Assembly (NCBI GenBank): GCA_902789665.1
Contig: CADAOY010000010.1
Location: 1 to 64,000, forward strand
DNA from: an uncultured Lachnospiraceae bacterium
GTDB taxonomy: Bacteria; Bacillota; Clostridia; Lachnospirales; Lachnospiraceae
Direction: 5' to 3'
DNA: 64,000 nucleotides
The notes under the pieces were generated by a model. That model searched no databases. It was not told the origin of the DNA and saw only the letters and a program-made list of their open reading frames with translations. This document shows positions 18,069-38,796 of the stretch, one piece after another; the stretch's first letter is position 1; each line of letters opens with the position of its first letter. The translations under genes and the position numbers were made by a program.

Positions 18069-18103
18069 TTTGTTGCGCATTTGTTAACCATCTATGATAT
18101 AAT
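18069..18103 (+). promoter_or_regulatory. promoter of A-B with TTTGTTGC direct repeats
   Basis: TTTGTTGC (18069-18076) and TTTGTTAA (18080-18087) have an 11-bp period. They lie 10 bp upstream of the extended -10 TGATATAAT (TATAAT at 18098-18103) and cover the -35 position. Similar repeats precede C and D. A small perfect hairpin GCGTGA/TCACGC (18140-18154) lies before the ribosome site. Confidence 0.6.
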
Positions 18104-18174
18104 TAACTCGTAGTTTGAAGAGAATTATTGTTCCATTTTGCGTGATTTTCACGCTATGGGTAAGGATGTAAACT

Positions 18175-21100
18175 ATGAAAGAATCAGAAAACAGCGAAAT
18201 ACTTGAAAACAGTGAAATAATAGATACTAAAAATATCAAAGATCTTGCCGAATCTCATTTTGACGAAAATTTTAGGTATGATTATCAGTATGGTGAAGAA
18301 AGAGATTTTGAGATTCTTGATCATGAGTTAAATTCATATGGTCTTAGCAGGAATAAAGATGGTATCTATCAGATAGAGGAAACATACGTCAATAAGAGAT
18401 ATGTCACAGACTATGTCTGGATGGCTCTTATGAAAATTTCCGGACAGTATGGTGCTAACAGGGATAAGAATCAGCTGCCTTTATTTGACGTTGTGGATAA
18501 GCGTAATACCTGTATTGTTTTACTTAATGGCAGAATGAATGCGCTTGCTGATTCAGGCAGAAAGAATATGAAAGAATATCAGGAGTGTGCTTTCCTTAGA
18601 AAAGCCCTGGCTAATGGCTGGACTCCGACGGATATTTTTCTGCTTTCACAGTTATATGAACTTGTTGATAAAACTACCGTAGGCAACGATAAGAAGATGG
18701 GTTTAAATATCCTTCATTTTATATCTGAGATTCAGCTTCAGACTGTTAAGGACAGACTGACAGTTTTAAGGGATATCGCTGATTTTTCCGCGACAATACA
18801 TAATCGTGAGGAGAGAATTAAATTTGAAGGTCTTTTAAATGCATCCTTAAATATCAATCCTCTTCCAACAGAATATGCAACAGATGAAAACTTCGCAGAA
18901 TTCTTTAAGAAGAATGGTTATTTAAATCCAAACCAGCAGATGAAGCATGGTTCTCCTTCAGAGAACTATCTTGATCTTCTTAGTTCTGCAACAATGTATA
19001 TGGGACTTTCTGACAATAAGAAACAGCGTGTCAGAGGAAAGAAAGACTATGTTATGTCCAAACTTAAGGAAGATGAGATGGAGCGTTTCAACATCACAAC
19101 CGGACATACACATAATCATATTACAAAGAGTAACCGTAACGCATTAAAGGAAGTTTTCGGTGATGAAATATATGATGACATCGATGAGATGCATCGCGGC
19201 GATGTAAATGACAGAACAGTTAAGATTTATCATTCACTTGGAAACAAGTATCTGCAAAAAGGCGAGGAAGTCCTTGAGATTGATTTTGCAGGTTCAGGAT
19301 TCAAGGAAGCAAGAAGAGAATATAATGGTCAGCATGGTAAGAAGTTTACTGATGGTACCAGAAATACCAATAATACAATAACAATGCAGTATGGTGACCT
19401 GGTTCAGAAACCGGGCAGCAGTAAAACTTATTCTCACCTTCGTGCGAAGAATACTTATGTTGATTTAAAAAATGGCCAGAAAATGACCAAAACAAGATAC
19501 AGTATTGCAGGCCCTACACCTGATCTTATTTTCAAGCCGGGTGCGCTGAATGTTGGCGAATACAGTATTGAGAATACAAGAGTATATGGAAAGAATTTTG
19601 CAGCAAAGTTCTTAACACCATTATTCCAGAAGGCTGCCAATGAATTAAAAACAGCAGAAGATATGAAGGATATTCATATTCATGTAACAGGACACAGCCG
19701 TGGCGCAGTCGCATCCAGCGAAAGTGTTAAGCTGATGAATAAGTGGGTAGAGGAATATGAGAATACTCATCCTGAATGTAAGGGATATTCAGACAGGGTT
19801 AAGTATAAGCAGATTCTTCGTGATCCTGTGCCGGGGATTTTTACTAAGTGGTTTCATGGAAGTGTGGACTTAAGAAATGTTAAGAATCTTGATACAACTC
19901 TCTTTTGTTCAATGGCTCAGGAGCATTATGATATTAACTTCCCGCTTCAGAATGTAAGAGGCGCACAGAGAATTATTATCGGAACTACTGACCATGGTAT
20001 GGAACTTGGAAGCACTGACAGTTCACAGGTTCTTCAAAAAGGTGATGGTAAGGCGCATCTTGCAGGTTTCTATGATTCAGAAACAGGCGAGTATTTCAGA
20101 GGCAGCGGCCTTACAGAGATTCCGGATGGCGTATATATTGCAGATGATAATTATAATTTAATCAGAATTACAAGTTATTCACAGCTTGCCAGGGTGATTG
20201 ATGCCGTATATGATGGTAATTCAAAGCAGGGCAGAGTGGATACCATTCATAAGATGGTAAGAAACTGGTTTTTGGATAATGAACTGAAAATGAGTTTTGT
20301 TGATGAAGATGCTTATGAGAATGCCAAGATTAAGAATCAGGATGTGGTTGATAAAATCATGGCTCATAATAACAGCAGACTGGATAATATTAAAGCAGCC
20401 ATCAATGATCTCAATGAATATAAAAATCAAATGATTCAAAGTGAAGAACAGTTAATCGCTCATAATAACAGAATCATTGAAGCCTGCAGGGAATATATGA
20501 AGAAGACTTCAATTCCTACTTCCAGAGCGGACAGCACATACAGAATGGATTTGGTTAGTGATCTTCTTTCTTACTGCATGAGAGAAAATAATCAGTACAA
20601 AGCAGAACTTGCCAAAATAAAAGGTGAACCGGAGAATGAACTTGATGCCAAGATAAGAAAACAAAGACAGAGAATGGAAGCAAAGCCGGGAGCCCTTGAC
20701 AGAAAACTCGAGAATGAAATGAAGAGAATCGAGAGAGATGAAAGTGTTGCTCGGATGATTAATCAGACTGTTAAGTTTTGTGAAGATACTGTAGATGCGC
20801 TTAAGGAGACTCGTAAGAATAAAAATCCATCCAGCTCATACAAGGCTTATATGGATGTTATTAAAGAAGGAGAACAACTCAGCGCTGACAACACATCTGT
20901 CCTGCAGTTTAAAAAGTTCTTAAAGAAACTTAAGAAAGTTGCATATGATTATTCAGACGGCCATACAATGTTTGGAGATCCAAGCAGCACTGACGGACAA
21001 AAAAGAGTTGAGTGGGCGGATAAGGCTGTTAAATATGCAACTTCCACACTTAAAAATATTAATAAGGTTTCCAGATATATGGCGGACAGAGATGAGCCGA

Positions 21101-21264
21101 TAGGAAAAGTAATTCAGGAAAGAAAAGACAAAGCAGAAAACCTTAAGAGTAAGGGGGCAGGTATTAACAACAATGAAGACCTGAATAAATCCACCGAAAT
21201 TATTACAACTGTAACTAAGAAAACAATTAAAAAAGAAGAAAAGAAAGCAGTAATAAGAAAGTAA
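18175..21264 (+). CDS. protein A: large lipase-fold-like protein with NGW motif
   Basis: I do not recognise a named family for the whole 1029 residues. The N-terminal 300 residues are helical and include an NGW motif (147-149: ANGWTPTDIFLLSQLYEL) that resembles motifs in proteins B and D. The middle carries an alpha/beta-hydrolase signature: HVTGHSRGAVAS with Ser 508 in a nucleophile elbow, then RDPVPG with Asp 550, and TTDHGME with His 607, in the correct order for a catalytic triad. The last 400 residues are charged, coiled-coil-like helices ending in a Lys-rich tail. There is no signal peptide or membrane helix. AAGGA precedes the ATG. B starts 15 bases after it. A lipase/esterase or phospholipase activity is inference from the motifs; an effector or toxin role is speculative. 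Confidence 0.6.
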   Translation: MKESENSEILENSEIIDTKNIKDLAESHFDENFRYDYQYGEERDFEILDHELNSYGLSRNKDGIYQIEETYVNKRYVTDYVWMALMKISGQYGANRDKNQLPLFDVVDKRNTCIVLLNGRMNALADSGRKNMKEYQECAFLRKALANGWTPTDIFLLSQLYELVDKTTVGNDKKMGLNILHFISEIQLQTVKDRLTVLRDIADFSATIHNREERIKFEGLLNASLNINPLPTEYATDENFAEFFKKNGYLNPNQQMKHGSPSENYLDLLSSATMYMGLSDNKKQRVRGKKDYVMSKLKEDEMERFNITTGHTHNHITKSNRNALKEVFGDEIYDDIDEMHRGDVNDRTVKIYHSLGNKYLQKGEEVLEIDFAGSGFKEARREYNGQHGKKFTDGTRNTNNTITMQYGDLVQKPGSSKTYSHLRAKNTYVDLKNGQKMTKTRYSIAGPTPDLIFKPGALNVGEYSIENTRVYGKNFAAKFLTPLFQKAANELKTAEDMKDIHIHVTGHSRGAVASSESVKLMNKWVEEYENTHPECKGYSDRVKYKQILRDPVPGIFTKWFHGSVDLRNVKNLDTTLFCSMAQEHYDINFPLQNVRGAQRIIIGTTDHGMELGSTDSSQVLQKGDGKAHLAGFYDSETGEYFRGSGLTEIPDGVYIADDNYNLIRITSYSQLARVIDAVYDGNSKQGRVDTIHKMVRNWFLDNELKMSFVDEDAYENAKIKNQDVVDKIMAHNNSRLDNIKAAINDLNEYKNQMIQSEEQLIAHNNRIIEACREYMKKTSIPTSRADSTYRMDLVSDLLSYCMRENNQYKAELAKIKGEPENELDAKIRKQRQRMEAKPGALDRKLENEMKRIERDESVARMINQTVKFCEDTVDALKETRKNKNPSSSYKAYMDVIKEGEQLSADNTSVLQFKKFLKKLKKVAYDYSDGHTMFGDPSSTDGQKRVEWADKAVKYATSTLKNINKVSRYMADRDEPIGKVIQERKDKAENLKSKGAGINNNEDLNKSTEIITTVTKKTIKKEEKKAVIRK

Positions 21265-21279
21265 AGGGGAAGATAAGCC

Positions 21280-24200
21280 ATGAAAGAAGTAAATGAAGAA
21301 GTAGTAGTTAATAATGGTGATATTAATGACATAGAAGCTCAGGCAGAAGAAATTCTTAAGAATCATCCAGGCCCAATTGAATTGAATAATATTACTGGTA
21401 TTGGGCAGACTTTAATCGGAATAAGGGAAAACTATCCTGAATATGTGAATGAGATGATGACTCTCGGGTTGGAGTGGTCTTCGATTCTCAGTACCATAGG
21501 TGGGAATAAGAACCATAAATGTGGTGAGTCAGTTTTTCCTGGAACAGATACTGATTCTGTAATGATTTCTAATGCGGAAGATAAGAAATCCATTGCAGTA
21601 TTATATGTTAAAACAAAGAAATTTGTTGATAAAATCAAGGCTAAATACCCTGATGCGAATTCTCCTTACAGAAAAATTATTGATATCTATGGCGAAGGCT
21701 TAGATTTACTTATGTCAAAAGAATATCAAAGCATAATGGAAATGGATACCATGTTAATACCAGGTATCAAATCAACTTTTCTTACTTTTCCAAATGATAT
21801 GTTTTTTACAGGGGAAGTGGATGAAAAGGGGAATAAAAAGTATTCCAGTAATCCTGAAAGATTTGGGGCTTTGCTTAATAAGTACCCTTTTATTGAACAA
21901 ATATCACATAGAGTCAATTTTGTAAATAAAGTTTATCTTCCTTACGTTAAGAAGAAAGAACGGGGAGAAGTAACAGAAAAAGAGGCTGAAGAATTTAGAA
22001 TTCAGTATCTTGATTTTATTAATAAGCAAAAAGAATATTTTGAAACAATTAAATCAGCCAACCAGAATGATAAGGACTTTATTGATAATAGAACAGTTGA
22101 TAAAACCGGAGCTAACCAGTTTATAGCAAACTGGGGAACCCGTTTTGGAAATATAACCATTCATGTAGCTGAAGACAATGCTAAAATACTTAATCGTGGC
22201 TGGTTACCAGAGGATGTATCCTTTTTTACTCAGTTAAAATTAATGAAGAAAAAACTGGAGTCCCAAAGTAAGCCTAATATCAAAAATATCCCTAAGGAGC
22301 AAATAGCTGAAGCAAAAAAAATACTGGCTGATATGGATGAGGCTTATACAAGGCTTACAACCAGGGAGGTGGTTTCTGCCGAAGAGAGAAAAGAACTTCT
22401 TGATAATATTACTCCTTTTGTAGACAGGTTCAATAATTGGTATAAAAAAATCAAAGTTGTACCACAACACAGAACGCTGGAAGATTATCCAATAAAGGGA
22501 TTACTGGATAGAGCCAGGAAGCGTAAAGTGCTTCAATCCGAAATCAAATCTGTTGTAAGTGATGAAAGAATTTTAGAAAATAACAATGAAATTTTCAGAA
22601 AAGACAGAATAATCTATGGCTACATGAATGCCGCTACAATTGAGGATAAGATTAATTATATTGTTGATCTTCATAGTTATCTTCGAATATATAAAGAAAA
22701 AAAACCTCCGGTATTATTTGCTGAAGAACACACAGCTTATGATGCAATTGAAACTGACTTTTTGAATAAATATGTAACTAATGGTTCGCAAAAAACAAGA
22801 CAGCTTGTCTTCAAGTTATTAGGACAGATCAATACTGCCAACAGTATTGAAATGAAAAATGAAATTGACAGGATATATAAGGAAAAACCGGAGCTTAAAG
22901 AAGAGGGCGAAATTGGCTTAAAAAAAGCATTGTACTTAACTAAAATGTCTACTAAGGCTGGAATAAGGTACGATGGGCTTAACAATTTAATGGGCATAGC
23001 CAGCAATGCCACCACCGATGGCAGGGCAGAAAGAGAAATAAACAGGATTGTTCGTATTACCCCTGAAACAACCATGGAAGAATTGGCCAGGATGCAGGGC
23101 TACTCCACAGATGAGGAAATAAATAAATTTCTAAACGAACATAAAGATAAACCGGCCAGAACTAAAAATGTTCTTGAAAGATATAAAGGATTATTTGATG
23201 ATCCTGAGGATGTTCCTGATGATGATACTTGTATTGAAAACATCACCAATGGCGTATTAAGAGGTAGAAAGAATAAACTCCTGGTAGAGGGAGGAGAAAA
23301 GGAAAAGGCAAAGCATAATCTTACTCTGGAGGATAATAAGCTTGTTGATACAATATCCCTTCAGAAGAAACTCGAGACAAACTATGATAATTTCAAGGAT
23401 TGGGTGGATACAGAAGGAAAGAATTATATTGATTCCCATAACTCAGCAGTGGAAAGGGAATTTACAAGTAATTTCTATAAAAACCACTTAAATCAGTATG
23501 AGAGATACAATTTAAGAAGTGAAGGTGCAAAGAAGAGAAAGGCAAAGAGTGTTGAAAAGGCTCATCCTGAATTTTTCAGAAGAGACGAAGATGGAAATTT
23601 CGCTAAGGCAGCAGTATCTGATGAAGAGAGACAAAATATCATCAGTGATTTTGAACTAAGGGAAACGAAATTATTAGAAAAGCAAAGCCTAAAGTATCGT
23701 AAGATGCTTCGCGTAGATGAGTTCAAAAACATTTATTCAAAAGTTTTTAATCCGCCAAGAGAATCATCCATTAGCAGTATATATGTTATCTGGGCAATGG
23801 GTAAGCATCCGGAAATTGACCTTAATGAAATTGTACAGATAGAAGAATATTCGGATATTGTTGAAGAATTCGTGAAGTTCTGTGAAGATAATCCGGTATG
23901 GAAGATGGATAATGCGAATGATTTCAAGAATAATATCCAGAACTGGGCGACAGCACTTAAAAACGGAACTGACCGTATTAAAGAACTGAAAATGCCGGAT
24001 ATTAATTATTCTGATAAGGATGAACTGGACGGCAATACAAGGATGCTTCTGTTTAAACTGCGAAGCCTGTCCATTGATTTCTCACAGGAAAAAGATAAAA
24101 TCTTTACTTTTGGTGCAGGACTTGAGGGCAAAAGCATCGCCGAGGATTTCCTTGGAACAAAAGATTATCGTGATATGCTGGAGTTTTGGAATGGAATTCA

Positions 24201-26460
24201 GAATATAAGCATACCTTATGAATACGGATTTATTAACTCAGAACAATATGAGAGTGAGAATTCAACCGAACAACTGGCAAAGGAGATGTTCTTTACAGCC
24301 GTTTCAAGAGCATTTATGAAAATTGCATTCAAGGAAGCTCCGGGCAGAACCCTTAATAATATGCTTAAGTTCACCGGTGGAGAAAAGTATTACTTAATGC
24401 AGATTCTTAAAGATTTGCCGAATATGGCTCCTAATGGTGTCCTTGATGAAAAGTTTGCCAAACTTGTGCCTATCAGCCTTAAGGAAGTATTAAATTACCT
24501 TGAGGATAAGGATGTCGAGAAATTTGAAAATAAGGTAAAAAAATTATTTGATAAACTGCGTCCTCAGTATGAAATTGAGGGCATGAATGAAATGTGGATG
24601 ACAGATATGTCTGCTTTTGCAAGCGGCATATCCTTCGGCAGTGCCAGAGATATTCTGATTAACAATATTGAAGATGCTGAAAGCGTTAAGAACTTCCTTA
24701 AATCAAAAGAAAGAATTACCGGAATAAGGAAAAGGGAAGATGGTATCGAGCCGGCAGCCTGGGTTGATCTTACCATGCGCGGCCTGTTTACTGAGAATTA
24801 TGTTCAGGCAATGAACAGCGCAGGTGTTAAGAGAAGCGAAACTCTCCTTATTAATGGAAAGACGCCTTTGGAATTATGGGGAAATAAATATGCTGACCTT
24901 GATGAAGCAACAAGGGAAAGATGCCTGGAGGTTGAAACTTTAAGAGCCATTGCCATGGGCAAGAGTGAAATTAAGATTAAGACATTTGCCCTAAAGAATG
25001 GTCATTATGAACTTGATGGCAAGGCTATAACATGCTTCATTCCGGCTGAGAAACTTCAGGATATTAAGGTCAATTATGAGGTCTATAAAAAAGGTGCCGA
25101 AAAGATTAAGAATGAATTAATCAGCATTCAGAATACACTTTTATCAGGTCATTTTGAGAAAGATCTTGAAAAAGCCAAAGCGGAAATTGGTACTGTAGGC
25201 TCGGATTTATTCCAGAATATGGAGAAAACTCTTAATGAGGCCATAAGGATACTGGGTGATAAAAATGCCTCACTTGATATGATTGAGGAGAAACTTCAGT
25301 TATTCCAGAAGGCTGCGGCAACATATTATAAAGAACGTAAGAGCATCTTTGACAAGCGCACGCCTGAAGCTAAGACAAGACTTGACGTATCAGCCCTTAG
25401 CAAGGAAAGAATTCCTGACATTATTGCCACATATCAGGAACTTACACGTGGTATTAAATCCGACCTGATAATTAGCAACGAACATACATTTAAGGATGCG
25501 AAGATTTTCCACTATAATATGGCTTTGTCTGATAAGAAGTTTGAAGCCGGTGAATTACAGAAGATTTATCAGACGGATAAAATCACCGTCAATGACAATT
25601 TATCAAAGCATATTTTAGAAGATACAGAAGCAATTGCCCGTGAAAAGAGAATGTTTACTGAAATTCTTAAAAAAGGCGTTAAAGATCTTGGATTCGATTA
25701 TTCAAAGATGCTTAAACTGGAAGACAGTAAGAGTCCTACAATTAATGAGTGGGCTATGAGTTACGTAGTAAAAAGCACTCTGGAGAAAATGCATAATGAT
25801 GGAACTTCTACCATGTCGCTTATGAATATGCAGCAGAAGTTAAAGCAAAAAATCGATAATGGTTCCTTTGCAAGGGAAGTGGAGAGACTTTCAAAGAATT
25901 CAGTATTTAAGGCTACACTTAGAATCTATTCCAAAAAAGAAAAATATGAAAAATGGAAAGAAATTGAGGCTAAGTCAGAGTCGATTATTAAAGAAAACAA
26001 ACAAAAACTGGATGAAACTACTGTAAATGGTGAGAAGTTTACAAATTATATCTTTAATGGTGATGTAAATCATGATGTTCCGCGTTTCGAAGACGCTATG
26101 GAGACCAGATATGACAGACTTGGCGAAATTGTATCAGCTCAACTGATTAATAATCCGGCATACAGATCTGTGGTTAATGCCATAGCATCTGGAAGAATGA
26201 CCCTGCATGATGTTCAGTCAAGCGTAACTGAGTCACTAAAGAATAAGCGAGTAATTGATAAGTGGGTTGAAAGGGGTGTTTCCTTTAATGACATGCTTAA
26301 GAAATTTAATGATAAGGAATGTGAGAAGGTTGCCATTTCCGGAATAATTAATACAGTTAATAATAAGGCAGAAACCTTCCTTCCTGAAGAGAAAAAGATG
26401 AAACCAACTCAGGATATTGAAGGACCAAAGATTAGTGCACCTCAGGCACCACATGCATAA
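21280..26460 (+). CDS. protein B: 1726-residue helical protein, paralogue of E
   Basis: There is no recognisable enzyme motif in this 1726-residue, charged, helix-rich protein and no signal peptide or membrane segment. An NRGW motif (305-308), with LPEDVSFFTQLKLM after it, matches the NGW motif of A and D. From about residue 832 to the end it aligns by eye with protein E. Landmarks are SIYVIWAMG, MPDINYSD, LLINGKTPLELWGNKY (from 1189) and FQKAAATYYKERKSIF, and both tails end KKM followed by several AP pairs. AAGGGGAAGATAAGCC precedes the ATG, and the gene is 15 bases behind A, so the two are one operon. The size and all-helical look suggest a scaffold or a large secreted or intracellular effector; I cannot choose. 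Confidence 0.65.
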   Translation: MKEVNEEVVVNNGDINDIEAQAEEILKNHPGPIELNNITGIGQTLIGIRENYPEYVNEMMTLGLEWSSILSTIGGNKNHKCGESVFPGTDTDSVMISNAEDKKSIAVLYVKTKKFVDKIKAKYPDANSPYRKIIDIYGEGLDLLMSKEYQSIMEMDTMLIPGIKSTFLTFPNDMFFTGEVDEKGNKKYSSNPERFGALLNKYPFIEQISHRVNFVNKVYLPYVKKKERGEVTEKEAEEFRIQYLDFINKQKEYFETIKSANQNDKDFIDNRTVDKTGANQFIANWGTRFGNITIHVAEDNAKILNRGWLPEDVSFFTQLKLMKKKLESQSKPNIKNIPKEQIAEAKKILADMDEAYTRLTTREVVSAEERKELLDNITPFVDRFNNWYKKIKVVPQHRTLEDYPIKGLLDRARKRKVLQSEIKSVVSDERILENNNEIFRKDRIIYGYMNAATIEDKINYIVDLHSYLRIYKEKKPPVLFAEEHTAYDAIETDFLNKYVTNGSQKTRQLVFKLLGQINTANSIEMKNEIDRIYKEKPELKEEGEIGLKKALYLTKMSTKAGIRYDGLNNLMGIASNATTDGRAEREINRIVRITPETTMEELARMQGYSTDEEINKFLNEHKDKPARTKNVLERYKGLFDDPEDVPDDDTCIENITNGVLRGRKNKLLVEGGEKEKAKHNLTLEDNKLVDTISLQKKLETNYDNFKDWVDTEGKNYIDSHNSAVEREFTSNFYKNHLNQYERYNLRSEGAKKRKAKSVEKAHPEFFRRDEDGNFAKAAVSDEERQNIISDFELRETKLLEKQSLKYRKMLRVDEFKNIYSKVFNPPRESSISSIYVIWAMGKHPEIDLNEIVQIEEYSDIVEEFVKFCEDNPVWKMDNANDFKNNIQNWATALKNGTDRIKELKMPDINYSDKDELDGNTRMLLFKLRSLSIDFSQEKDKIFTFGAGLEGKSIAEDFLGTKDYRDMLEFWNGIQNISIPYEYGFINSEQYESENSTEQLAKEMFFTAVSRAFMKIAFKEAPGRTLNNMLKFTGGEKYYLMQILKDLPNMAPNGVLDEKFAKLVPISLKEVLNYLEDKDVEKFENKVKKLFDKLRPQYEIEGMNEMWMTDMSAFASGISFGSARDILINNIEDAESVKNFLKSKERITGIRKREDGIEPAAWVDLTMRGLFTENYVQAMNSAGVKRSETLLINGKTPLELWGNKYADLDEATRERCLEVETLRAIAMGKSEIKIKTFALKNGHYELDGKAITCFIPAEKLQDIKVNYEVYKKGAEKIKNELISIQNTLLSGHFEKDLEKAKAEIGTVGSDLFQNMEKTLNEAIRILGDKNASLDMIEEKLQLFQKAAATYYKERKSIFDKRTPEAKTRLDVSALSKERIPDIIATYQELTRGIKSDLIISNEHTFKDAKIFHYNMALSDKKFEAGELQKIYQTDKITVNDNLSKHILEDTEAIAREKRMFTEILKKGVKDLGFDYSKMLKLEDSKSPTINEWAMSYVVKSTLEKMHNDGTSTMSLMNMQQKLKQKIDNGSFAREVERLSKNSVFKATLRIYSKKEKYEKWKEIEAKSESIIKENKQKLDETTVNGEKFTNYIFNGDVNHDVPRFEDAMETRYDRLGEIVSAQLINNPAYRSVVNAIASGRMTLHDVQSSVTESLKNKRVIDKWVERGVSFNDMLKKFNDKECEKVAISGIINTVNNKAETFLPEEKKMKPTQDIEGPKISAPQAPHA

Positions 26461-26481
26461 AAATTTGATAAAGATTTTTAC

Positions 26482-26513
26482 AAATCGAGTAGGGAAACCT
26501 GCTCGATTTTGTT
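26482..26513 (+). terminator. terminator of the A-B operon
   Basis: AAATCGAGTAGG pairs with CCTGCTCGATTT (one G-U) around GAAA, followed by TTTTGTT. The core CGAGTAGG is shared with the hairpin at 476-499. TATAAT at 26515-26520 right behind it may be the -10 of the next gene. Confidence 0.8.
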
Positions 26514-26553
26514 ATATAATAAAAGTAGTTTTTTGTGAAAAGGAGAACATAAT

Positions 26554-27591
26554 ATGAGATATCCTAAACCTCTTGAAAATGGCGGAACAATCGGTTTTAT
26601 CGCCCCATCTTTTGGCTGCGCCATTGAGCCTTATGAATCCAGATTTAAAAATGCAATTAAATTACTTGAAAATAAAGGATATAAAACATATTTAGGTCCG
26701 AACTGTTATGAAAATAATGGTATTGGTATAAGTAATACGCCTCAAAACTGTGCCGGGGAATTAAATGAAACCATGGTAAGAGATGACATTGATGCGGTGA
26801 TTACCTGCGGCGGTGGAGAATTAATGTGTGAGGTAGTTCCATATATTGATTTTGAGGCTATAGCGAAAGCAAAGCCTAAATGGTATATGGGTTATTCCGA
26901 TAATACCAATTATACTTTTCTTTCCGCGACATTAGCTGATACTGCGGCCATATACGGACCGTGCGCTCCTGCATTTGGCAGAGAGCCATGGCATGAATCG
27001 GTGGAAGACGCGCTGGGGTTACTAACCGGAACGTTTCGTTCTTCTCACGGTTATGAAACCTGGGAAAGTTTTGATGACTGCTCAGATAAGGATGATGAAG
27101 AACCGCTTAAACCTTATAATGCCAAAACCAAAACAGAATATAAATATTTTAATGCCTCCGGTAATCAGGCTTCTTTCAAGGGAAGATTATTAGGCGGCTG
27201 CATGGATATTCTTATTATTCACTGCGGAACCAAATATGACAGGGTTAAGGAATTTAATGAAAAATATAAAGAAGATGGTGTAATCTGGTTTTTTGAATGC
27301 TGCGACTTACCACCGCTTAGTATGAGAAGAGCCTTCTGGCAGTTACGCGAAGCTGGATGGCTCGACAATGCCAAAGGATTCTTAATTGGCAGACCGCTGC
27401 ACTATGGGGAAGAACAGCTCGGAGTTAATCAGTACAACGCCGTTACAGATATACTTGGAGATATGAATCTTCCAATCATCATGGATCTTGATATAGGTCA
27501 TCTTCCGCCTATGATGCCTCTTATTACGGGCGCCATGGCCAGTGTGAACGCGAAAGACAATAATATTACAATAGATTATGATTATGTATAA
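26554..27591 (+). CDS. S66 family LD-carboxypeptidase / MccF-like peptidase
   Basis: This 345-residue protein is a full-length member of serine peptidase family S66. The nucleophile region reads WYMGYSDNTNYTF, the glycine-rich part AVITCGGGELMCEV, the catalytic Glu lies in WFFECCDLPPLSM and the His in DLDIGHLPPMMPL. The family splits into LD-carboxypeptidases that trim peptidoglycan tetrapeptides in the cytoplasm and MccF-like enzymes that cleave microcin C-type aminoacyl nucleotides. The inserted stretch at about 170-205 and the DLPPLSM region look closer to the MccF-like branch, but I cannot decide. AAAGGAG precedes the ATG. It lies between members of the unknown family (B upstream, C downstream), which may be accidental. 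Confidence 0.88.
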   Translation: MRYPKPLENGGTIGFIAPSFGCAIEPYESRFKNAIKLLENKGYKTYLGPNCYENNGIGISNTPQNCAGELNETMVRDDIDAVITCGGGELMCEVVPYIDFEAIAKAKPKWYMGYSDNTNYTFLSATLADTAAIYGPCAPAFGREPWHESVEDALGLLTGTFRSSHGYETWESFDDCSDKDDEEPLKPYNAKTKTEYKYFNASGNQASFKGRLLGGCMDILIIHCGTKYDRVKEFNEKYKEDGVIWFFECCDLPPLSMRRAFWQLREAGWLDNAKGFLIGRPLHYGEEQLGVNQYNAVTDILGDMNLPIIMDLDIGHLPPMMPLITGAMASVNAKDNNITIDYDYV

Positions 27592-27593
27592 TA

Positions 27594-27629
27594 TTTGTTA
27601 ATCTTTTGTTGCCCTTTGTATGTTAAAAC
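27594..27629 (+). promoter_or_regulatory. TTTGTT repeats before C
   Basis: TTTGTTAA (27594-27601) and TTTGTTGC (27605-27612) have an 11-bp period, with a weaker TTTGTA at 27615. A possible extended -10 TGTTAAAAC ends at 27629, 11 bp after the second repeat. The layout copies that before A and D. The -10 is weak, and another promoter a little downstream is possible. Confidence 0.45.
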
Positions 27630-27669
27630 ATAAGTGCATGATGAAAATATATATAAAGGGAGAATGATT

Positions 27670-28581
27670 ATGTCTAGAGGACTTTGTACAATAGAAAAAG
27701 ATGATAACGAACTGGTAAAATACCTGCTTTCAGATAAAGAATTAGTGACAATGGGTTCAAAAGGAACAGTTAAAAATATCAGAAAGCAGACCGTTTTTAA
27801 TGGCATGTCTCTGGATGACATGTTTGAGCATATGTTTAATGGAGGTGGGTTTACAAACAATCTTCAGAATAAGATGCTTATTACACTAATCTATGGATCT
27901 GCCGGAGAAAATCCTTATATGGATGATATGCTGGTGTCTTTCATTCAGGGAATATACAGACTTAAGCCTAAAAGCAGAGAAAATCAGAATAAAATGCTTA
28001 AGGTAATGGCAGAGAATATTGATGCTTATGCTCCTTACAGTGAGAAGTTAGGCGGCCTGGCCAGGTATGTGGATTACTGCATTGAGGCAAATAACAGATT
28101 CATGTCTAATGAAGGATTGCCAATTAAGGAAGAACAGATTCTTGATAAAGTAAGTAAGCAACGGCTTGATTTACAAATAACAAAAAGTTATAAGGAAGCC
28201 AGACAAATACTTACAAAGAAGGGCTGGGATTTAGCAAAGTATCCTGAAGATGAAGAATTATTAAGAACAGTATTTAATCTTGAAAGAGAAGGAACCAGGG
28301 CAGGTCATCAGATATATAAAAAATATGTTGAAACTGTTTTAAGCAGAACGATTCATAATGAAATCGACAGAGATAATGTATATAAAGATTTTCAACATTT
28401 CCTGCATGAGAATAATCTTCACAGGTATAAAAATGTAGAATCACTTGATAAGTTTATAGGTGCTGTGATATACAGTAGTAAAGAAGAAGTTGAAATGTGT
28501 CAGAGAAAAACTGCAGAAAAAAATCTTTCTAAGAACGTAAATAATGGCAGCAAAATCAGTGTAAAAGGAAGGGGCAGATAA
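27670..28581 (+). CDS. protein C: 303-residue unknown protein with KGW motif
   Basis: I do not recognise this protein. It is helical and soluble with no signal peptide. The stretch KKGWDLAKYPEDEELLRTVF (KGW at 184-186) resembles the NGW motif of A, B and D, and the segment NGMSLDDMFEHMF near residue 45 is another amphipathic helix. It ends in a basic tail (SVKGRGR). I chose the ATG at 27670, eight bases after GGGAG; upstream in-frame ATGs at 27634 and 27664 are worse placed. The stop codon overlaps the start of the Memo/AMMECR1 fusion gene (TAATG), so the two are translationally coupled, the clearest functional hint available. Confidence 0.6.
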   Translation: MSRGLCTIEKDDNELVKYLLSDKELVTMGSKGTVKNIRKQTVFNGMSLDDMFEHMFNGGGFTNNLQNKMLITLIYGSAGENPYMDDMLVSFIQGIYRLKPKSRENQNKMLKVMAENIDAYAPYSEKLGGLARYVDYCIEANNRFMSNEGLPIKEEQILDKVSKQRLDLQITKSYKEARQILTKKGWDLAKYPEDEELLRTVFNLEREGTRAGHQIYKKYVETVLSRTIHNEIDRDNVYKDFQHFLHENNLHRYKNVESLDKFIGAVIYSSKEEVEMCQRKTAEKNLSKNVNNGSKISVKGRGR

Positions 28582-29963
28582 TGGCAATTATTTCGGCATA
28601 TATGGTACCACATCCTCCAATGATTGTTCCGGCAGTTGGAAGAGGAAGCGAGAGTTCCATTGAAGAAACAACAAGAGCATATATTGAAGTGGCAAAGGAT
28701 ATTGCTGAGGTAAAACCGGATACAATTATTGTAACGGACCCTCATACGATTATGTATGCAGATTATAATCACATATCACCAGGGGACAGGGCTGAAGGAG
28801 ACCTGTCCTCTTTTGGCGCTCCAAATATTAAATTTAAGGAGCAGTATGATAAAGAACTTGTAGACCTTATTGAGAAAAAGGCAGAGAAAGAAGAGGTATT
28901 TGCCGGCACTCTTGGAGAGAGAAATCCAAGACTTGACCATGGAATTATGGTGCCGCTTTATTTCATAAGGCAGTATTATAAAGGCGGAAAAATAGTTAGA
29001 GTTGGTCTTTCAGGATTGCATTATTATGATCATTATAAACTTGGAATGATAATTTCTGATGCAGTGACTACCCTTGGAAGAAGGGCAGTTGCAGTTGCAA
29101 GTGGTGACCTTTCACACAAGTTAAAAGATGACGGTCCTTATGGTTTTGATGAGAACGGTCCAAAATATGATGAGAAAATAATGGATGTTTTTAGAAGGGG
29201 AGCCCTGGGAGAACTTCTTAAATTTGATGAAAGTTTTTGTGATAAGGCTGCAGAATGTGGCCATAAATCATTTGTTATTATGGCAGGAATGCTGGATGGT
29301 CTAAGTGTTGAAACCAGGGTTTTATCTCATCAGGATGTAACTGGAGTAGGATATGGCATATGCATGTTACAGCCCCAGGGAACAGATGATTCAAGGCATT
29401 TTCTTGATGCTGATTTAAATAAAATAAAGAATGAGTTAAATGATAATTATAAAAAGAAAGATCCTTACGTTAATCTGGCAAGGGCTGCCATATATGAATA
29501 TGTTCAAAATGGAAAGGAACTTGAGGTTCCGGATAATCTGCCCGGGGAGATGATAAGTAAAAGAGGCGGGACTTTTGTCAGCGTTCATAAGTTTGGTGAT
29601 TTAAGGGGCTGCATCGGAACCATAGCTGCGACAAGAAAAAATCTTGCCAAAGAAATAATAGGTAATGCCATAAGCGCAGTATCAAATGATAACAGGTTTT
29701 CACCGGTTACAAAAAATGAACTCGACTATCTGGATATAAGTGTTGATGTACTTTCCGAGGCAGAAGACATTGATGATATGAGTATGCTGGATGTAAAGAA
29801 ATATGGAGTAATAGTTACGTCAGGAAGCAAAAGAGGCCTCCTTTTGCCGGATCTGGAAGGAGTTGACAGTGTGGAAGAACAGGTAAGAATTGCAAGGAAT
29901 AAGGCAGGCATTGGAAGCAATGAAAAAATAACTTTAAAAAGATTTGAAGTAATAAGACATTAG
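28581..29963 (+). CDS. Memo-like (LigB) / AMMECR1 fusion protein
   Basis: This 460-residue protein is the AmmeMemoRadiSam A/B fusion typical of Clostridia. Residues 1-265 form a Memo-like domain related to class III extradiol dioxygenases (LigB), with metal-site histidines in MVPHPPMIV, TDPHT, LDHGIMVPL and SGDLSHKL. Residues about 285-460 form the AMMECR1 domain with FGDLRGCIGT. A radical SAM protein is the usual third partner and is not present in this window. The system is thought to modify something by radical chemistry, but the substrate is unknown. The start codon overlaps the stop of C, so C is likely made with it. Confidence 0.9.
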   Translation: MAIISAYMVPHPPMIVPAVGRGSESSIEETTRAYIEVAKDIAEVKPDTIIVTDPHTIMYADYNHISPGDRAEGDLSSFGAPNIKFKEQYDKELVDLIEKKAEKEEVFAGTLGERNPRLDHGIMVPLYFIRQYYKGGKIVRVGLSGLHYYDHYKLGMIISDAVTTLGRRAVAVASGDLSHKLKDDGPYGFDENGPKYDEKIMDVFRRGALGELLKFDESFCDKAAECGHKSFVIMAGMLDGLSVETRVLSHQDVTGVGYGICMLQPQGTDDSRHFLDADLNKIKNELNDNYKKKDPYVNLARAAIYEYVQNGKELEVPDNLPGEMISKRGGTFVSVHKFGDLRGCIGTIAATRKNLAKEIIGNAISAVSNDNRFSPVTKNELDYLDISVDVLSEAEDIDDMSMLDVKKYGVIVTSGSKRGLLLPDLEGVDSVEEQVRIARNKAGIGSNEKITLKRFEVIRH

Positions 29964-29997
29964 TGTTGCATATTTGTTGCACATTACATGATATTAT
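29962..29997 (+). promoter_or_regulatory. promoter of D with TTTGTTGC direct repeats
   Basis: AGTGTTGC (29962-29969) and TTTGTTGC (29973-29980) have an 11-bp period and lie 11 bp upstream of an extended -10 TGATATTAT (TATTAT 29992-29997). The segment from TTGC at 29966 to the -10 aligns almost base for base with the A promoter (one single-base gap). Confidence 0.6.
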
Positions 29998-30039
29998 GCA
30001 TATATCAAAAGTCATAACAGTAAAAAGGAGAACAAAATT

Positions 30040-32442
30040 ATGGGAGACTTAAACAAAAAATATTCTAAATTTGATTTCATTATTAAATTAAGAGACAACG
30101 GCTGGATTGCTAAAGATGAAGAGGTTCCTGCTTTTGAGGAACTTTATGATCTAATTGAAAAAAATGACAAACTTGATGCTCTCGATGCTCAGCTTATGGT
30201 TATGACTAAAAAGGATGGATGGAGTGAAAAGCAAAGAGTATCCATTTTAAATCAACTTGATAATACTATCATGCAATATGTTAAAGATGGTGTACTTAAA
30301 GAAGAAGATATTAAAGCATATAATAGCGCTAAAGATGGAATGACGAAGTATAAATCTACAGAACTTCTTCAGCGTAATGAGTTTTGGATAAAGGAAAGAT
30401 CAAAAGTTATAGAGGCAGAAGATAACAGACTTAGAAAGAGTTATATTGCAAAGATTGAAAATAATAATAAGTCATTTGATGATAAATACGGAATGAATAA
30501 AGAGGCTTTCATTGAGAAAGCTAAGGCTAATGGATGGGTAATGCCAGCTGATTACATGGTTATGGAATACATGTATGTATTATGCAGGAACTCAGCTTAT
30601 CCGGAAATGCTTGAATTATTTGATAAGGTACTGAATACATCTCTTAAATCCGTACAGGAAAGAAATAAGATGGCTGTAGAGATTTATAATGTTTCAAAGA
30701 AAATGGATAAATTGGTAAGAGGAAAAGACTTTACTACTTTGGAGAATCTTAAGTATAGATTAGATAGAGAAGCTAAAGAAAAGAAATATAATGAATGCCT
30801 TGAAAGTTATAAAAAAAATAAGCAGATTGATGAGAATCAGATAAAATATCAAAATGCACTTATTGCAAATGGATGGGATCAGGTTTCTGCCCATAAGCTT
30901 GGAACCGTATATTATAGACTTTCAAATGCATTATCCGAGTATAATATTCAGCCAGATGAGGCTATGGCTATTCTTACATCCAAAAAGATTGATAAGAATA
31001 ATCCGGCTTCGGATATTTATCAGTTACTTGATAAATTTAGTGCAAAACTGAATGAAAATAAAAATGTTGAAAAATTTAAGCTTAAATTCTCAGAATCTGT
31101 CAAGAATATTAAAAAAGCATATAAAGAACAATATAGTAAAGAACAACTTAAGATTAAAAAAGAAGAATTTGATGCTGATAAAAAGGCGTTAAAAAATAAT
31201 AAGCCAGTAAGTGATAAAAAGAAAGATGCAGAGGATATTCTAAATAACAAGAATACTGAAAATCTTGCTGAAAAAGCTATTAAGAAAGAAAAGATAGATG
31301 AAAAGAAAAAAATAGCAGATGAAAAGAAAGCAAAAATACAAGAAGAGGCTGGTATAGCATTTCCTCTTGTTAAGAAAAGCCAGTTAGTCAAAAATGCCAA
31401 AGATATGTATAACATGATAAAGAAGGTTGACTTCAATCTTTTTGGTAAGGGCTCTACACAGTTTAATGAAATGAGAGATGCTCTTAAAGAGTGGAAGGAA
31501 TTTGCTGAGACCAATCTTTTCGAAGGGAACAATGGATATACTTCTTCAACAGATCTTGCAAAGTATCTTGATATGCAAAAGAAATGTCTTAATAAAGTAA
31601 GAACATATGTTGATTACAAGAAGGGACAGCTTCTTAACAATCCGGACAGAGTAAATGATGGAAAGAAACAGGCTCATGAACAGCCACGTGTTTCTGCAGC
31701 TCTCAGTGTGCTTGATACAATGGAACATACTTATGCATATGGAGAGTTCGCCCTCGTAGCTACCATGCAAAGTTCATGCATACCTCCTTTGCAGGAAGAG
31801 TTGAAAAAGGAGACAGAGAAAATAAAAAAAGGTAATTATATTACCGATGAAGAACTTGAGAAGATTACAGCGGATGCGAAAGGAAATGAAAAGGCACTTA
31901 ATAAGAGTAAAGAAACTACTATAAAGAATAATTATTATCGCTCCGTTGGTAAAGTCGGTGACATACTGTATAAACTTAATGGTGATTCCTGGTCTTTAAA
32001 GCCTGACGAGACACATGAAAACTATGTTACCAGAACATCACAGCTTGGAGACATGGAAGTTTATGAAGATATGAATCTTCTGGATGCAACAATTATTCAT
32101 GCAAAGAATCATCCGACAAGAAATCTTCTTAGACAGGCTCAGGCTATGTACAAAGGTGGTGAATATAATAATGTTCAGTATAAGGGTGGAGAGATGTTTA
32201 CCTCCATTAAAGATATTAAAAAAATTGTAAAAGATACGGCTAAGAAAAATGGTCGTAAATATGTTGAGTTAGATGATATTAAGATGCCGGATGCCAAGGG
32301 TACTTCCGCAAATGTACATAATGAGGTGGCATCTTTAAGAGAAAACATGATTTCACAAACTCAGAAGGCAAAAGAGGAAGCAGAAAAACAGGCTGCAGCC
32401 AACAAGAAAGTAGTTAAAGCAGGCGGTGGAATGAAGAAGTAA
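30040..32442 (+). CDS. protein D: 800-residue protein with repeated NGW modules
   Basis: No named family is recognised. The first 300 residues contain three copies of a module starting with NGW: RDNGWIAKDEEVPAFEELY (20-22), KANGWVMPADYMVMEYMY (164-166) and IANGWDQVSAHKLGTVYY (277-279). A further DGW lies at 59-61. Each is followed by amphipathic helices of about 60-70 residues. Residues about 330-450 are an extreme Lys/Glu/Asp coiled coil. The C-terminal 330 residues are a separate helical domain ending AAANKKVVKAGGGMKK. There is no signal peptide or membrane helix. AAAAGGAG precedes the ATG. It is a single-gene unit with its own promoter, related in promoter layout to A and C. Confidence 0.6.
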   Translation: MGDLNKKYSKFDFIIKLRDNGWIAKDEEVPAFEELYDLIEKNDKLDALDAQLMVMTKKDGWSEKQRVSILNQLDNTIMQYVKDGVLKEEDIKAYNSAKDGMTKYKSTELLQRNEFWIKERSKVIEAEDNRLRKSYIAKIENNNKSFDDKYGMNKEAFIEKAKANGWVMPADYMVMEYMYVLCRNSAYPEMLELFDKVLNTSLKSVQERNKMAVEIYNVSKKMDKLVRGKDFTTLENLKYRLDREAKEKKYNECLESYKKNKQIDENQIKYQNALIANGWDQVSAHKLGTVYYRLSNALSEYNIQPDEAMAILTSKKIDKNNPASDIYQLLDKFSAKLNENKNVEKFKLKFSESVKNIKKAYKEQYSKEQLKIKKEEFDADKKALKNNKPVSDKKKDAEDILNNKNTENLAEKAIKKEKIDEKKKIADEKKAKIQEEAGIAFPLVKKSQLVKNAKDMYNMIKKVDFNLFGKGSTQFNEMRDALKEWKEFAETNLFEGNNGYTSSTDLAKYLDMQKKCLNKVRTYVDYKKGQLLNNPDRVNDGKKQAHEQPRVSAALSVLDTMEHTYAYGEFALVATMQSSCIPPLQEELKKETEKIKKGNYITDEELEKITADAKGNEKALNKSKETTIKNNYYRSVGKVGDILYKLNGDSWSLKPDETHENYVTRTSQLGDMEVYEDMNLLDATIIHAKNHPTRNLLRQAQAMYKGGEYNNVQYKGGEMFTSIKDIKKIVKDTAKKNGRKYVELDDIKMPDAKGTSANVHNEVASLRENMISQTQKAKEEAEKQAAANKKVVKAGGGMKK

Positions 32443-37183: not shown

Positions 37184-37194
37184 GGAGGAAGACA

Positions 37195-38694
37195 ATGGGA
37201 AAAGCAACAGGTTTTATGGAATATGAACGTAAAGACGGTCCGGTTGTTCCTGAGAAGGACCGTGTACAAAACTTTAAAGAATTTCATCAAAGTCTTCCGA
37301 AGGAAGAACAACAAAAACAGGCTTCGAGATGTATGGAGTGCGGTGTACCTTTCTGTCAGGCCGGATGTATGATATCCGGAATGATGTCAGGCTGCCCGCT
37401 TCATAATCTTGTTCCTGAAGTAAATGATCTGGTATATAACGGACTTTATGAGCAGGCTTATGAAAGATTATCAATTACTCACTCTTTCCCTGAATTTACA
37501 TCAAGGGTATGTCCTGCACTTTGCGAGGCAGCCTGTACCTGCGGCTTACATGCAGGTCCTGTTTCCACTAAAGAAAATGAGAAAGCAGTTATTGAATATG
37601 CTTTTGAAAATGGTCTTGTAAAAGAACCGGCTCCGACCGTCAGAACAGGTAAGAAAGTTGCTGTTATAGGAAGCGGTCCTTCAGGACTTGCGACAGCGCA
37701 GCTTCTTAACAGAAGAGGACATGAAGTTACAGTATATGAAAGAAGCGATCGCGTAGGCGGACTTCTTCGCTACGGCATTCCTAACATGAAACTTGATAAG
37801 TCTGTGATAGACAGAAGAGTTAAACTGATGGAAGAGGCAGGAGTTAAGTTTATCTGTAATGCCAATGTCGGAATGAAGGAAGGTGAAGGCGCAGTAGATG
37901 TAAAGGATTTAAAGAAAGAGTATGACGCAGTTGTACTTTGCTGCGGCGCATCAAACCCGCGTAATATTGAGGCTCCGGGCAGAGATGCCAACGGTATATA
38001 TTTCGCAGTTGATTTCTTAAAAGAGGTTACAAAGAGACTTTTGGACGGTGATTTTGTCAAAGTGCCTTATGAACTTGCGAAGGATAAAAATGTGGTTGTA
38101 ATCGGCGGTGGTGATACAGGTAATGACTGCGTGGGCAGCTGTATTAGACTTGGTGCCAAGAGTGTTACACAGCTTGAAATGATGCCTAAACCGTCTGAGA
38201 CCAGACTTCCATCCAACCCATGGCCGGAGTGGCCTCGTATTCTTAAAACAGATTACGGTCAGGAAGAAGCCATCTGGAAATTCGGGGAAGATCCGAGAAT
38301 ATATCAGACTACCGTTAAGGAATTTAAGAAAGATAAAAATGGCAATTTAAAGGAAGTGGTAATCGTTTCACTGGAGTCTAAAAAAGACGAGAAGACCGGG
38401 CGTATAATGATGGTTCCGGTTGATGGAACTGAAAAGACCATTAAGGCTGAACTTGTGCTTATTGCGGCAGGCTTCCTTGGAAGTGAAAAATATGTGACGG
38501 ATGCTTTTGGTGTGGAAACAGACGGAAGAACAAATGTCAAAACTACCGCCGGCAAACATCAAAGCAGCGTTAAAGGTATATTTGCAGCAGGCGATGTGCA
38601 TATCGGTCAGTCTCTGGTTGTAAGAGCCATAGCAGAGGGCAGAAATGCGGCAGCAGAAGTTGATGAGTATCTGATGGGTTATACGAATCTTTGA
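37195..38694 (+). CDS. gltD: glutamate synthase small subunit
   Basis: This 499-residue GltD supplies electrons from NAD(P)H to GltB. The N-terminal domain carries cysteines for two 4Fe-4S clusters (ASRCMECGVPFCQAGC and VCPALCEAACTCG). The FAD-binding site is VAVIGSGPSGLATAQLL, and the NAD(P)-binding site is VVVIGGGDTGNDCVG. The end has the FAD-contact pattern GIFAAGDVHIGQSLVVRAI. GGGAGG precedes the ATG. The length and all motifs fit an active protein. Confidence 0.97.
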   Translation: MGKATGFMEYERKDGPVVPEKDRVQNFKEFHQSLPKEEQQKQASRCMECGVPFCQAGCMISGMMSGCPLHNLVPEVNDLVYNGLYEQAYERLSITHSFPEFTSRVCPALCEAACTCGLHAGPVSTKENEKAVIEYAFENGLVKEPAPTVRTGKKVAVIGSGPSGLATAQLLNRRGHEVTVYERSDRVGGLLRYGIPNMKLDKSVIDRRVKLMEEAGVKFICNANVGMKEGEGAVDVKDLKKEYDAVVLCCGASNPRNIEAPGRDANGIYFAVDFLKEVTKRLLDGDFVKVPYELAKDKNVVVIGGGDTGNDCVGSCIRLGAKSVTQLEMMPKPSETRLPSNPWPEWPRILKTDYGQEEAIWKFGEDPRIYQTTVKEFKKDKNGNLKEVVIVSLESKKDEKTGRIMMVPVDGTEKTIKAELVLIAAGFLGSEKYVTDAFGVETDGRTNVKTTAGKHQSSVKGIFAAGDVHIGQSLVVRAIAEGRNAAAEVDEYLMGYTNL

Positions 38695-38709
38695 TAACAA
38701 TGATAATTT

Positions 38710-38756: not shown

Positions 38757-38796
38757 GCATATTTGATTAGGGGCTAAAGAATAAAAGGAGTAGATT

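What the first reader, a model, noticed from the sequence alone, without database searches (positions are those of the whole stretch)
18069..32442. A family of large unsignalled proteins sharing an NGW helical module, clustered in one region
Proteins A, B, C and D have no family that I recognise, yet they share a motif of the form (N/K)GW-x3-5-D/E followed by amphipathic helices with LY or similar. It is once in A (147-149), once in B (305-308), once in C (184-186) and three to four times in D (20, 59, 164, 277). After the motif, A and D also share a similar order of helices, such as QTVKDRLTVLRDI in A and KSVQERNKMAVEI in D. All lack signal peptides, and A, C, D and E end in clearly basic tails. 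Together with the similar promoters and paralogue E this looks like a multi-gene system.
Basis: partly seen in the sequence, partly recalled or inferred. Interest (0 to 1): 0.8.

Follow-up and report, generated by a model that had tools for sequence, protein, structure and literature searches.

The report
Secretion-system effector genes in rumen bacteria
The odd giant proteins look like co-regulated cargo of an injection machine derived from DNA-transfer machinery, in a gut bacterium whose relatives mostly come from ruminant stomachs; if so, a Gram-positive commensal has a large arsenal of proteins to send into other cells.

Summary
The genes are real and belong together, but NGW does not unite them: it is a true repeat in D, marginal in A, unsupported in B and C. 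Three other features do. (1) A direct repeat, TGTTGCNNWTTTGTT, precedes A(-B), D and E; a variant precedes C. Of 20 exact sites in the genome (reversed control 0), 16 precede large unsignalled proteins and 3 precede genes in or beside one type IV secretion (T4SS) locus, including its pilin. (2) Of 397 family genomes, 21 have this T4SS; B-type proteins occur in 11 and D-type in 7, all within the 21 (p = 4e-16, 4e-10, not phylogeny-corrected). (3) Unrelated bodies share basic N/G/P/K/Q-rich tails with Pro near the end (23/30 vs 10/89). The T4SS has VirD4, VirB4, pilin and VirB6-like parts and no PF03432 relaxase nearby. Relatives' large proteins carry PI3/PI4-kinase-like domains. Named T4SS hosts are largely ruminant-stomach bacteria. 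Best reading: A-E are substrates of a relaxase-less Gram-positive T4SS, possibly aimed at rumen eukaryotes. Translocation is inferred, not shown.

The parts
18071..18085 (+). Direct repeat TGTTGCGCATTTGTT upstream of A, followed by a TATAAT-like box
   Evidence: one of 20 exact sites in the genome (reversed-pattern control 0)
18175..21264 (+). Protein A, 1029 aa; GHSRG hydrolase-like motif at residues 506-510 (window 19690-19704); one NGW at residues 147-149 (window 18613-18621)
   Evidence: homologue only in G002 among 150 family genomes; no Pfam family
21280..26460 (+). Protein B, 1726 aa, 15 bases after A, probably one transcript; about 550-aa module at residues 830-1410 (window 23767-25509)
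   Evidence: full-length relatives in G189 and G002
27596..27610 (+). Variant direct repeat TGTTAATCTTTTGTT upstream of C
27670..28581 (+). Protein C (ATG start; 315 aa if read from GTG 27634); tail charge +6; membership tentative
   Evidence: no relative among fetched proteins
29964..29978 (+). Direct repeat TGTTGCATATTTGTT upstream of D
30040..32442 (+). Protein D, 800 aa; GW helical repeats at residues 20, 59, 164 and 277; conserved C-terminal region about 449-627 shared with relatives
61184..64000 (-). Protein E, B-family paralogue; full length 1013 aa, start and repeat (C10:64271-64285) lie beyond the window

Best explanation
A, B, D and E, and probably C, belong to a dispersed regulon of large cytoplasmic proteins that are exported by a conjugation-derived type IV secretion system encoded elsewhere in the same genome (contig C3, core about 137-157 kb) with no relaxase found near it. 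Proposed working: the sensor kinase and response regulator and/or the STAS/HATPase/SpoIIE set encoded in the T4SS locus switch on promoters bearing the TGTTGC direct repeat, turning on pilin/T4SS genes and effector genes together. The basic N/G/P/K/Q-rich C-terminal tail is the shared handle, read by the VirD4-type coupling ATPase. VirB4 powers passage through a VirB6-like channel; the co-regulated PASTA surface protein and lysozyme-domain protein help it cross the cell wall. The proteins then act outside the cell or inside a target cell, possibly a eukaryote (rumen ciliates or fungi). Shown here: shared repeat, co-occurrence, tails, T4SS parts, no PF03432 relaxase near. Inferred: which regulator binds the repeat, tail recognition by VirD4, translocation, target.
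For: (1) Exact TGTTGCNNWTTTGTT: 20 sites in G000 (reversed control 0); 16 precede large unsignalled proteins (A, D, E among them), 3 precede genes in or beside the T4SS locus (pilin C3:157287; PASTA protein C3:144689; C3:133043, four genes ending with or near the lysozyme-domain protein), 1 a 98-aa ORF. In five G000 stretches never seen before, 5 of 5 first ORFs were large (482 to over 2711 aa) without a strongly hydrophobic segment, and 4 of the 4 whose ends were in hand had tail charge +5 to +7. Also 19 sites in G002, 34 in G189, 18 in G359, 7 in G151. (2) 397 family genomes: VirB4 profile 21, B module 11, D family 7, all 11 and 7 inside the 21; p = 4e-16 and 4e-10. G000 and G120 supplied rows to the B profile and G000 to the D profile; without them it is 9 of 9 and 6 of 6. 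Same genus, 31 genomes: B 9, VirB4 (39% identity or more) 9, both 8, p = 1e-5. (3) Tails: 30 family members vs 89 soluble proteins: last-30 charge +4 vs 0, NGPKQ 0.52 vs 0.27, Pro in last six 23/30 vs 10/89 (p = 4e-11). (4) T4SS parts: VirD4 (PF02534 3e-55), pilin (PF18895 7e-13), STAS, HATPase, SpoIIE, His_kinase/Response_reg pair and a lysozyme domain in G000; VirB4 (PF19044 5e-18) in G159. VirB6-like and VirB4 with a 330-aa protein stand side by side in 33 of 53 loci, with VirD4 in front in 21; many loci are cut by contig ends. (5) PF03432 relaxases occur in 12 of 28 T4SS genomes, never on the T4SS contig except in single-contig G046, about 350 kb away; G120 (100% complete) has none. A second, about 30%-identical VirB4 in G168 does share its contig (C74) with a relaxase, as a conjugative element would. 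(6) Family members or tailed large proteins lie beside the T4SS in G000, G120, G159 and G168, a GW-module ORF in G176, and others on its contig in G002.
Against: No translocation data. 10 of the 21 T4SS-positive family genomes gave no B-module match and 14 no D-family match. G151 has B-family proteins and 7 repeat sites but no VirB4 found (84% complete); G167 has VirB4 fragments but no B match (69% complete). The exact repeat is enriched in only 4 of 28 T4SS genomes plus G151; the other 24 have 0-2, like the 29 T4SS-negative ones. Sister species show a diverged repeat, but that was found after the fact. In G189 only 5 of 10 tested sites led to tailed large proteins; two led to giant proteins with a hydrophobic segment and three to neither. 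B's last 30 residues have charge -1; A and D lack the terminal proline. G000's own candidates have no Pfam family above cut-off and G000 has no PF00454 match. Only one relaxase family was searched genome-wide, and several T4SS contigs are short. The genome searches scored only the first few candidates per genome, so negatives are not absolute. Relatedness is not corrected for.
Confidence: 0.74

Rival explanations
1. The proteins are non-secreted partners of the T4SS (scaffolds, storage or cytoskeleton-like giant proteins) that are switched on with it.
For: The same co-regulation and co-occurrence; D is helical and repetitive; some B-family frames reach 3747 residues, long for a T4SS substrate.
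Against: Several unrelated bodies share only the tail; catalytic-type domains or motifs are present (PI3/PI4-kinase-like in relatives, papain-like and GHSRG motifs by eye).
Confidence: 0.13
2. They are T4SS-delivered toxins against other bacteria rather than eukaryotes.
For: Antibacterial T4SSs exist in Gram-negatives (PMC6536674 and others seen in the listing only); rumen communities are dense in bacteria.
Against: No small immunity-type gene is evident beside A, B or D (A and B are 15 bases apart); a weak Imm68 match lay inside one large G002 protein, below cut-off; PI3/PI4-kinase-like domains are enriched in T4SS genomes (10 of 28 vs 1 of 29). None of this excludes bacterial targets.
Confidence: 0.2
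3. The T4SS is an ordinary conjugative element with its relaxase elsewhere, and the giant proteins are cargo or surface/regulatory genes of a mobile element.
For: VirD4/VirB4/pilin are conjugation-type parts; 12 of 28 T4SS genomes have a PF03432 relaxase somewhere.
Against: No PF03432 relaxase near the T4SS in any of the 28; none at all in G120. Candidates are spread over at least six contigs of G000 among housekeeping genes. E and its neighbours are conserved in place in G151.
Confidence: 0.08
4. One reading: a protein family defined by an NGW helical module.
For: D repeats, a 1161-aa G159 protein and a G176 ORF share it; A weakly.
Against: B, C and E are not recognised by the profile.
Confidence: 0.04

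Closest known systems
Effector-translocating T4SSs of Gram-negative bacteria (VirB/D4, Dot/Icm type)
   Same: VirD4 and VirB4 ATPases and a pilin; many candidate effectors scattered over the genome; hydrophilic basic C-terminal tails (tail rule recalled); kinase-like domains among candidates
   Different: Monoderm-type machine with a PASTA surface protein and wall lysozyme domain, effector bodies of largely unnamed families in frames up to 3747 residues, one direct-repeat regulon; translocation not shown
T4SS of the Streptococcus suis 89K island
   Same: Gram-positive T4SS credited with protein export (PMC12857230, section 22 read)
   Different: There one exported protease is named, and the 89K system is described as carrying the signature genes of most Gram-positive mobile elements; here a large set of co-regulated candidates and no PF03432 relaxase near the machine
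T4SSs of conjugative elements (ICEs) in Bacillota
   Same: VirD4/VirB4/VirB6-like/pilin parts
   Different: No relaxase near; linked to and co-regulated with large tailed proteins
T4SS with VirB2-like pilins in Patescibacteria
   Same: A pilin (here PF18895) in a monoderm T4SS; PMC12857230 describes a pilin array there
   Different: Different phylum and gene set; no comparison of sequences was made here

Membership tests
VirB/D4-type T4SS (the machine) | VirD4/T4CP and VirB4 ATPases | tested here: met
   PF02534 3e-55 (G000), 1e-51 (G159); PF19044 5e-18 (G159); G000 VirB4 67% identical to G159's
VirB/D4-type T4SS (the machine) | Pilin, VirB6-like channel protein, wall hydrolase | tested here: met
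   Pilin PF18895 7e-13 above cut-off; VirB6-like by position, membrane spans and a sub-cut-off PF19597 match (0.002); lysozyme domain PF18013 5e-13 in a neighbouring gene. VirB8-like not identified
Conjugative element | Relaxase near the T4SS | tested here: not met
   PF03432 only; 0 of 28 T4SS genomes have one within about 350 kb on the T4SS contig; other relaxase families not searched genome-wide
T4SS effector (A-E) | No N-terminal signal, basic hydrophilic C-terminal tail | tested here: met
   A-E hydropathy maximum 0.31-1.06; tail charge +4 to +6 except B (-1); family-wide test p = 2.5e-7 for charge
T4SS effector (A-E) | Genomic co-occurrence and co-regulation with the T4SS | tested here: met
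   B 11 of 11, D 7 of 7, A 2 of 2 positive genomes have the T4SS; shared repeat
T4SS effector (A-E) | VirD4-dependent translocation | not testable with these tools
   Needs a bench test
Effector acting on eukaryotes | Eukaryote-like catalytic domains | tested here: inconclusive
   PF00454 in 10 of 28 T4SS-positive vs 1 of 29 T4SS-negative genomes, but not in G000; A-E have no Pfam family
Alpha/beta hydrolase (A) | Fold and catalytic triad | tested here: inconclusive
   GHSRG conserved in the homologue; model failed, pLDDT 34; no Pfam or PDB match
Phage protein or known defence system | Match to PHROGs or PADLOC models | tested here: not met
   0 of 5 proteins at E <= 0.01 in either library
   Profile finds D and two other-genome proteins; A marginal; B and C not

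The most novel reading that the evidence does not exclude
Rumen Lachnospiraceae and some other Clostridia carry a Gram-positive counterpart of the Legionella strategy: a relaxase-less T4SS that injects dozens of giant effectors, including PI3/PI4-kinase-like and hydrolase-like proteins, into rumen ciliates or fungi, to resist predation or to live on or in them.
Probability: 0.4. Interest if true: 0.97.

Novelty: new variant of a known kind. Interest (0 to 1): 0.88.

Why it matters
[quoted passage not shown] suis 89K island as apparently the first case (PMC12857230, section 22 read whole). If the target is rumen protozoa, it adds an unknown layer to rumen ecology.

Tried and rejected
NGW as the unifying feature: not supported. 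Pfam and NCBIfam for A-E: only sub-cut-off hits, e.g. MukB, OTU. PDB sequence searches with A alone (no match), with A plus its homologue, with the B module and with the kinase-like G002 protein: nothing better than E 0.25. AlphaFold of A residues 278-732 (single sequence) failed, mean pLDDT 34, so no fold claim is made for A; the D model (pLDDT 59) was judged too weak for a fold search, and none was run. Defence and phage libraries: no hits. C: searched only among proteins fetched here, not genome-wide; no relative. A listing script used a faulty pattern and printed 'none' for every G000 site; one search replaced it. The mechanical 'effector-like' test calls A negative (its tail has too few N/G/P/K/Q) and also the 482-aa and the cut 2711-aa proteins; it still gives 11 of 17 ORFs after the repeat vs 9 of 169 others (p = 9e-9). 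Among the 9 are a CTP-synthase-like enzyme at window 46554-48152 (by eye), E itself (its repeat lies outside the window) and genes inside runs of same-strand candidates. Rows dropped before counts: for the tail test, 12 of 41 hand-listed candidates (not in a similarity family, cut, or duplicates of another row) were left out of both sides; for the genus comparison, G171 and a second G168 VirB4 hit (about 28-31% identity) were set aside. In the G120 genome a further repeat (TTGCA pair) precedes 2 of 4 candidates and 1 of 43 others, too few to count.
Full report
What is in the window. A (18175-21264) and B (21280-26460) lie 15 bases apart; C (27670-28581), D (30040-32442) and E (61184-64000, minus, continuing outside) stand among what look like housekeeping genes. 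None of A-E has a Pfam or NCBIfam family above cut-off, nor a PADLOC or PHROGs match. None has a strongly hydrophobic segment.

The NGW observation. The positions are right. Only D clearly has more GW motifs than expected: 4 vs 0.13. A profile of D repeats and repeats of a 1161-aa G159 protein recognises D, that protein (which stands just upstream of the T4SS of G159) and a 280-aa ORF, cut by the stretch end, beside the T4SS of G176. A is marginal; B, C and E are not recognised. The single-sequence AlphaFold model of D 1-330 (mean pLDDT 59) shows four helix-GW-helix units. So the module is a real repeat of some members, not the common denominator.

Relatives. In the window's genome (G000, 2.25 Mb, 10 contigs, 91.5% complete) B matches two further proteins on C1, one on C4, and E on C10; D matches one on C4, which links it to two more on C1; A matches none. 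In the same genus 9 of 31 genomes have B matches, some in open frames of 2700-3747 residues with several matches in a row; the module is about 550 residues (alignment A3). B has full-length relatives in G189 and, over residues 458-1714, in G002.

The T4SS lead. Reading the islands of giant proteins in G159 showed a T4SS among them: VirD4 (PF02534 1e-51), a VirB6-like membrane protein, VirB4 (PF19044 5e-18), a PASTA surface protein and a lipoprotein-like protein. VirB4 of this clade was then found in 9 of 31 genus genomes at 39% identity or more, two of them as fragments, and in G000 on C3; 8 of these 9 are among the 9 with B matches (p = 1e-5). In G000 the order is: pilin, surface protein, VirD4, a 330-aa membrane-anchored protein, VirB6-like, VirB4, STAS, PASTA protein, lipoprotein-like, a 206-aa protein, HATPase, SpoIIE. 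Among 53 loci from GTDB genomes, many cut by contig ends, the 330-aa protein, VirB6-like and VirB4 genes are neighbours in 33, with VirD4 in front in 21. Beside G000's locus are a sensor kinase (PF06580), a response regulator and a lysozyme-domain protein (PF18013).

Co-occurrence. Over the same 397 family genomes: VirB4 profile 21, B-module profile 11, D-family profile 7; all 11 and all 7 lie inside the 21 (p = 4e-16 and 4e-10). Relatedness is not corrected, though the 11 span 9 genera. G000 and G120 supplied rows to the B profile and G000 to the D profile; without them it is 9 of 9 and 6 of 6. Only the first few candidates per genome were scored, so negatives are not absolute. A was found in 2 of 150 genomes, both T4SS-positive. 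The PI3/PI4-kinase domain PF00454 (E <= 0.001) occurs in 10 of 28 T4SS-positive and 1 of 29 T4SS-negative genomes (p = 0.002); all 5 genomes above the curated cut-off are T4SS-positive; of 14 control genomes 1 has a match, 0 above cut-off. In G002 it sits in a 1327-aa protein, the second gene after the A homologue, on the same contig as its T4SS. G000 itself has no PF00454 match.

Relaxase. PF03432 is present in 12 of 28 T4SS-positive genomes, but on other contigs; in G046, a single contig, the nearest is about 350 kb away. G120 (100% complete) has none. No relaxase appeared among the locus proteins scanned, 7 of G159, 9 plus 10 of G000 and 1 of G120. Other relaxase families were not searched genome-wide, and several T4SS contigs are short. 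By contrast, G168's second, 31%-identical VirB4 shares contig C74 with a relaxase.

Tails. 30 members of the B, D, A, X (G159 1161-aa) and kinase-like families against 89 other soluble proteins of at least 300 aa from the same stretches: last-30 net charge +4 vs 0, NGPKQ fraction 0.52 vs 0.27, Pro in the last six residues 23 of 30 vs 10 of 89; Pro is concentrated at the very end compared with shuffled last-40 (23 vs mean 9.6; 0 of 2000 shuffles). The 30 came from similarity families; 12 other hand-listed candidates were left out of both sides. Bodies of the 30 are also somewhat less hydrophobic and richer in N/G/P/K/Q than the background, but the tail-minus-body differences remain (p = 4e-6 to 2e-11).

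Regulon. Exact TGTTGCNNWTTTGTT: 20 in G000 (reversed control 0), 19 in G002 (0), 34 in G189 (0), 18 in G359 (1), 7 in G151 (0); 0-2 in the other 24 T4SS-positive genomes and 0-2 in the 29 T4SS-negative ones, with controls 0-2. Of the 20 in G000, 16 precede large unsignalled proteins, 3 genes in or beside the T4SS locus, 1 a 98-aa ORF. Of 10 G000 sites whose surroundings were fetched afterwards, 7 had such a protein as first ORF (one cut at its end); five of these lay in stretches never seen before, 5 of 5 positive. Of 10 G189 sites, 5 did, 2 led to giant proteins with a hydrophobic segment, 3 to neither. In G000 stretches in hand, effector-like ORFs follow the repeat in 11 of 17 cases and occur without it in 9 of 169 (p = 9e-9). 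Sister species carry a diverged repeat, TGTTGGAC twice at the same pitch: 7 of 13 candidates vs 3 of 147 other ORFs, one of the three being the pilin of G168 (found after the fact). G151, the B-positive genome without VirB4, has 7 exact sites, so its T4SS may be missing from the 84%-complete assembly (inference).

Ecology. Of 53 loci found with VirB4 in GTDB genomes, 18 titles name a ruminant stomach compartment (RGIG series) and 15 belong to the RUG series (rumen, recalled); NC2004 and LC2019 are rumen isolates (recalled); the source of the rest was not looked up. Three of the 53 are weak relatives (25-41% identity). Lachnospiraceae are reported as enriched in rumen ciliate fractions, as cited in PMC10579323 (passages read); PMC6079354 speaks of type 4 and 6 secretion in protist-associated Proteobacteria only (passages read).

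Other catalytic hints. A has GHSRG at 506-510, conserved in its homologue. A 1416-aa repeat-bearing protein beside G000's T4SS has GCWSVS...GHFLTI, papain-like by eye. The kinase-like proteins carry NxDRHxxN followed by IDND; likeness to HipA, Fam20C or PI-kinase folds rests on the Pfam matches PF00454 and PF06702 and otherwise on recall.

Judgement. The machine, the regulon and the tails make T4SS export the best reading (0.74). Delivery into eukaryotes is a weaker inference (0.4), because the kinase domains were found in relatives, not in G000, and no target was tested. The confidences of the rivals are not exclusive of one another: bacterial targets would still be T4SS export.

Noticed in passing
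L013:16307-18331 and G159 C40:15420-17405 (L042): Large proteins with a TIR-like N-terminus and a leucine-rich-repeat-like part (by eye) beside SpoIIE-type phosphatase-like genes, near giant-protein genes in two genomes.
   Followed up: no
G000 C4:158996 (L211:47-436 and the ORF at 463): The one repeat site that is neither before a T4SS-locus gene nor before a giant protein precedes two similar small ORFs of 98 and 105 aa that resemble Nif11-type leaders (by eye).
   Followed up: no
L013:7275-12488 and the overlapping ORF that follows: A B-family protein of 1737 aa ends without the usual tail, while a 146-aa ORF overlapping its end finishes in a basic, proline-containing tail; the gene may be broken.
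   Followed up: no
G002 contig C26 (L185, L186, L054, L187): Fifteen soluble ORFs with the tail signature (358-1717 aa) on the 95-kb contig that also holds the T4SS; nine of them scanned, no Pfam family above cut-off.
   Followed up: partly
L191:14664-16904 (G189): A 747-aa protein with an ADP-ribosylglycohydrolase domain (PF03747, 1e-39) at residues 1-258 and a lysine-rich end.
   Followed up: no
G168, G175, G176 T4SS loci (L086, L089, L088): VirB4 is split into a short N-terminal ORF and a long ATPase ORF, while in G000, G120, G152 and G159 it is one open frame.
   Followed up: no
window 32636-46391: By eye a nitrogen-assimilation cluster (glutamate synthase subunits, two glutamine-synthetase-like proteins, an ammonium transporter, an asparagine-synthase-like protein).
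   Followed up: no
L137 (title Prevotella sp. NALB_7821b_27): A 41%-identical VirB4 with a VirB6-like neighbour in a bin labelled Prevotella, perhaps a binning error.
   Followed up: no
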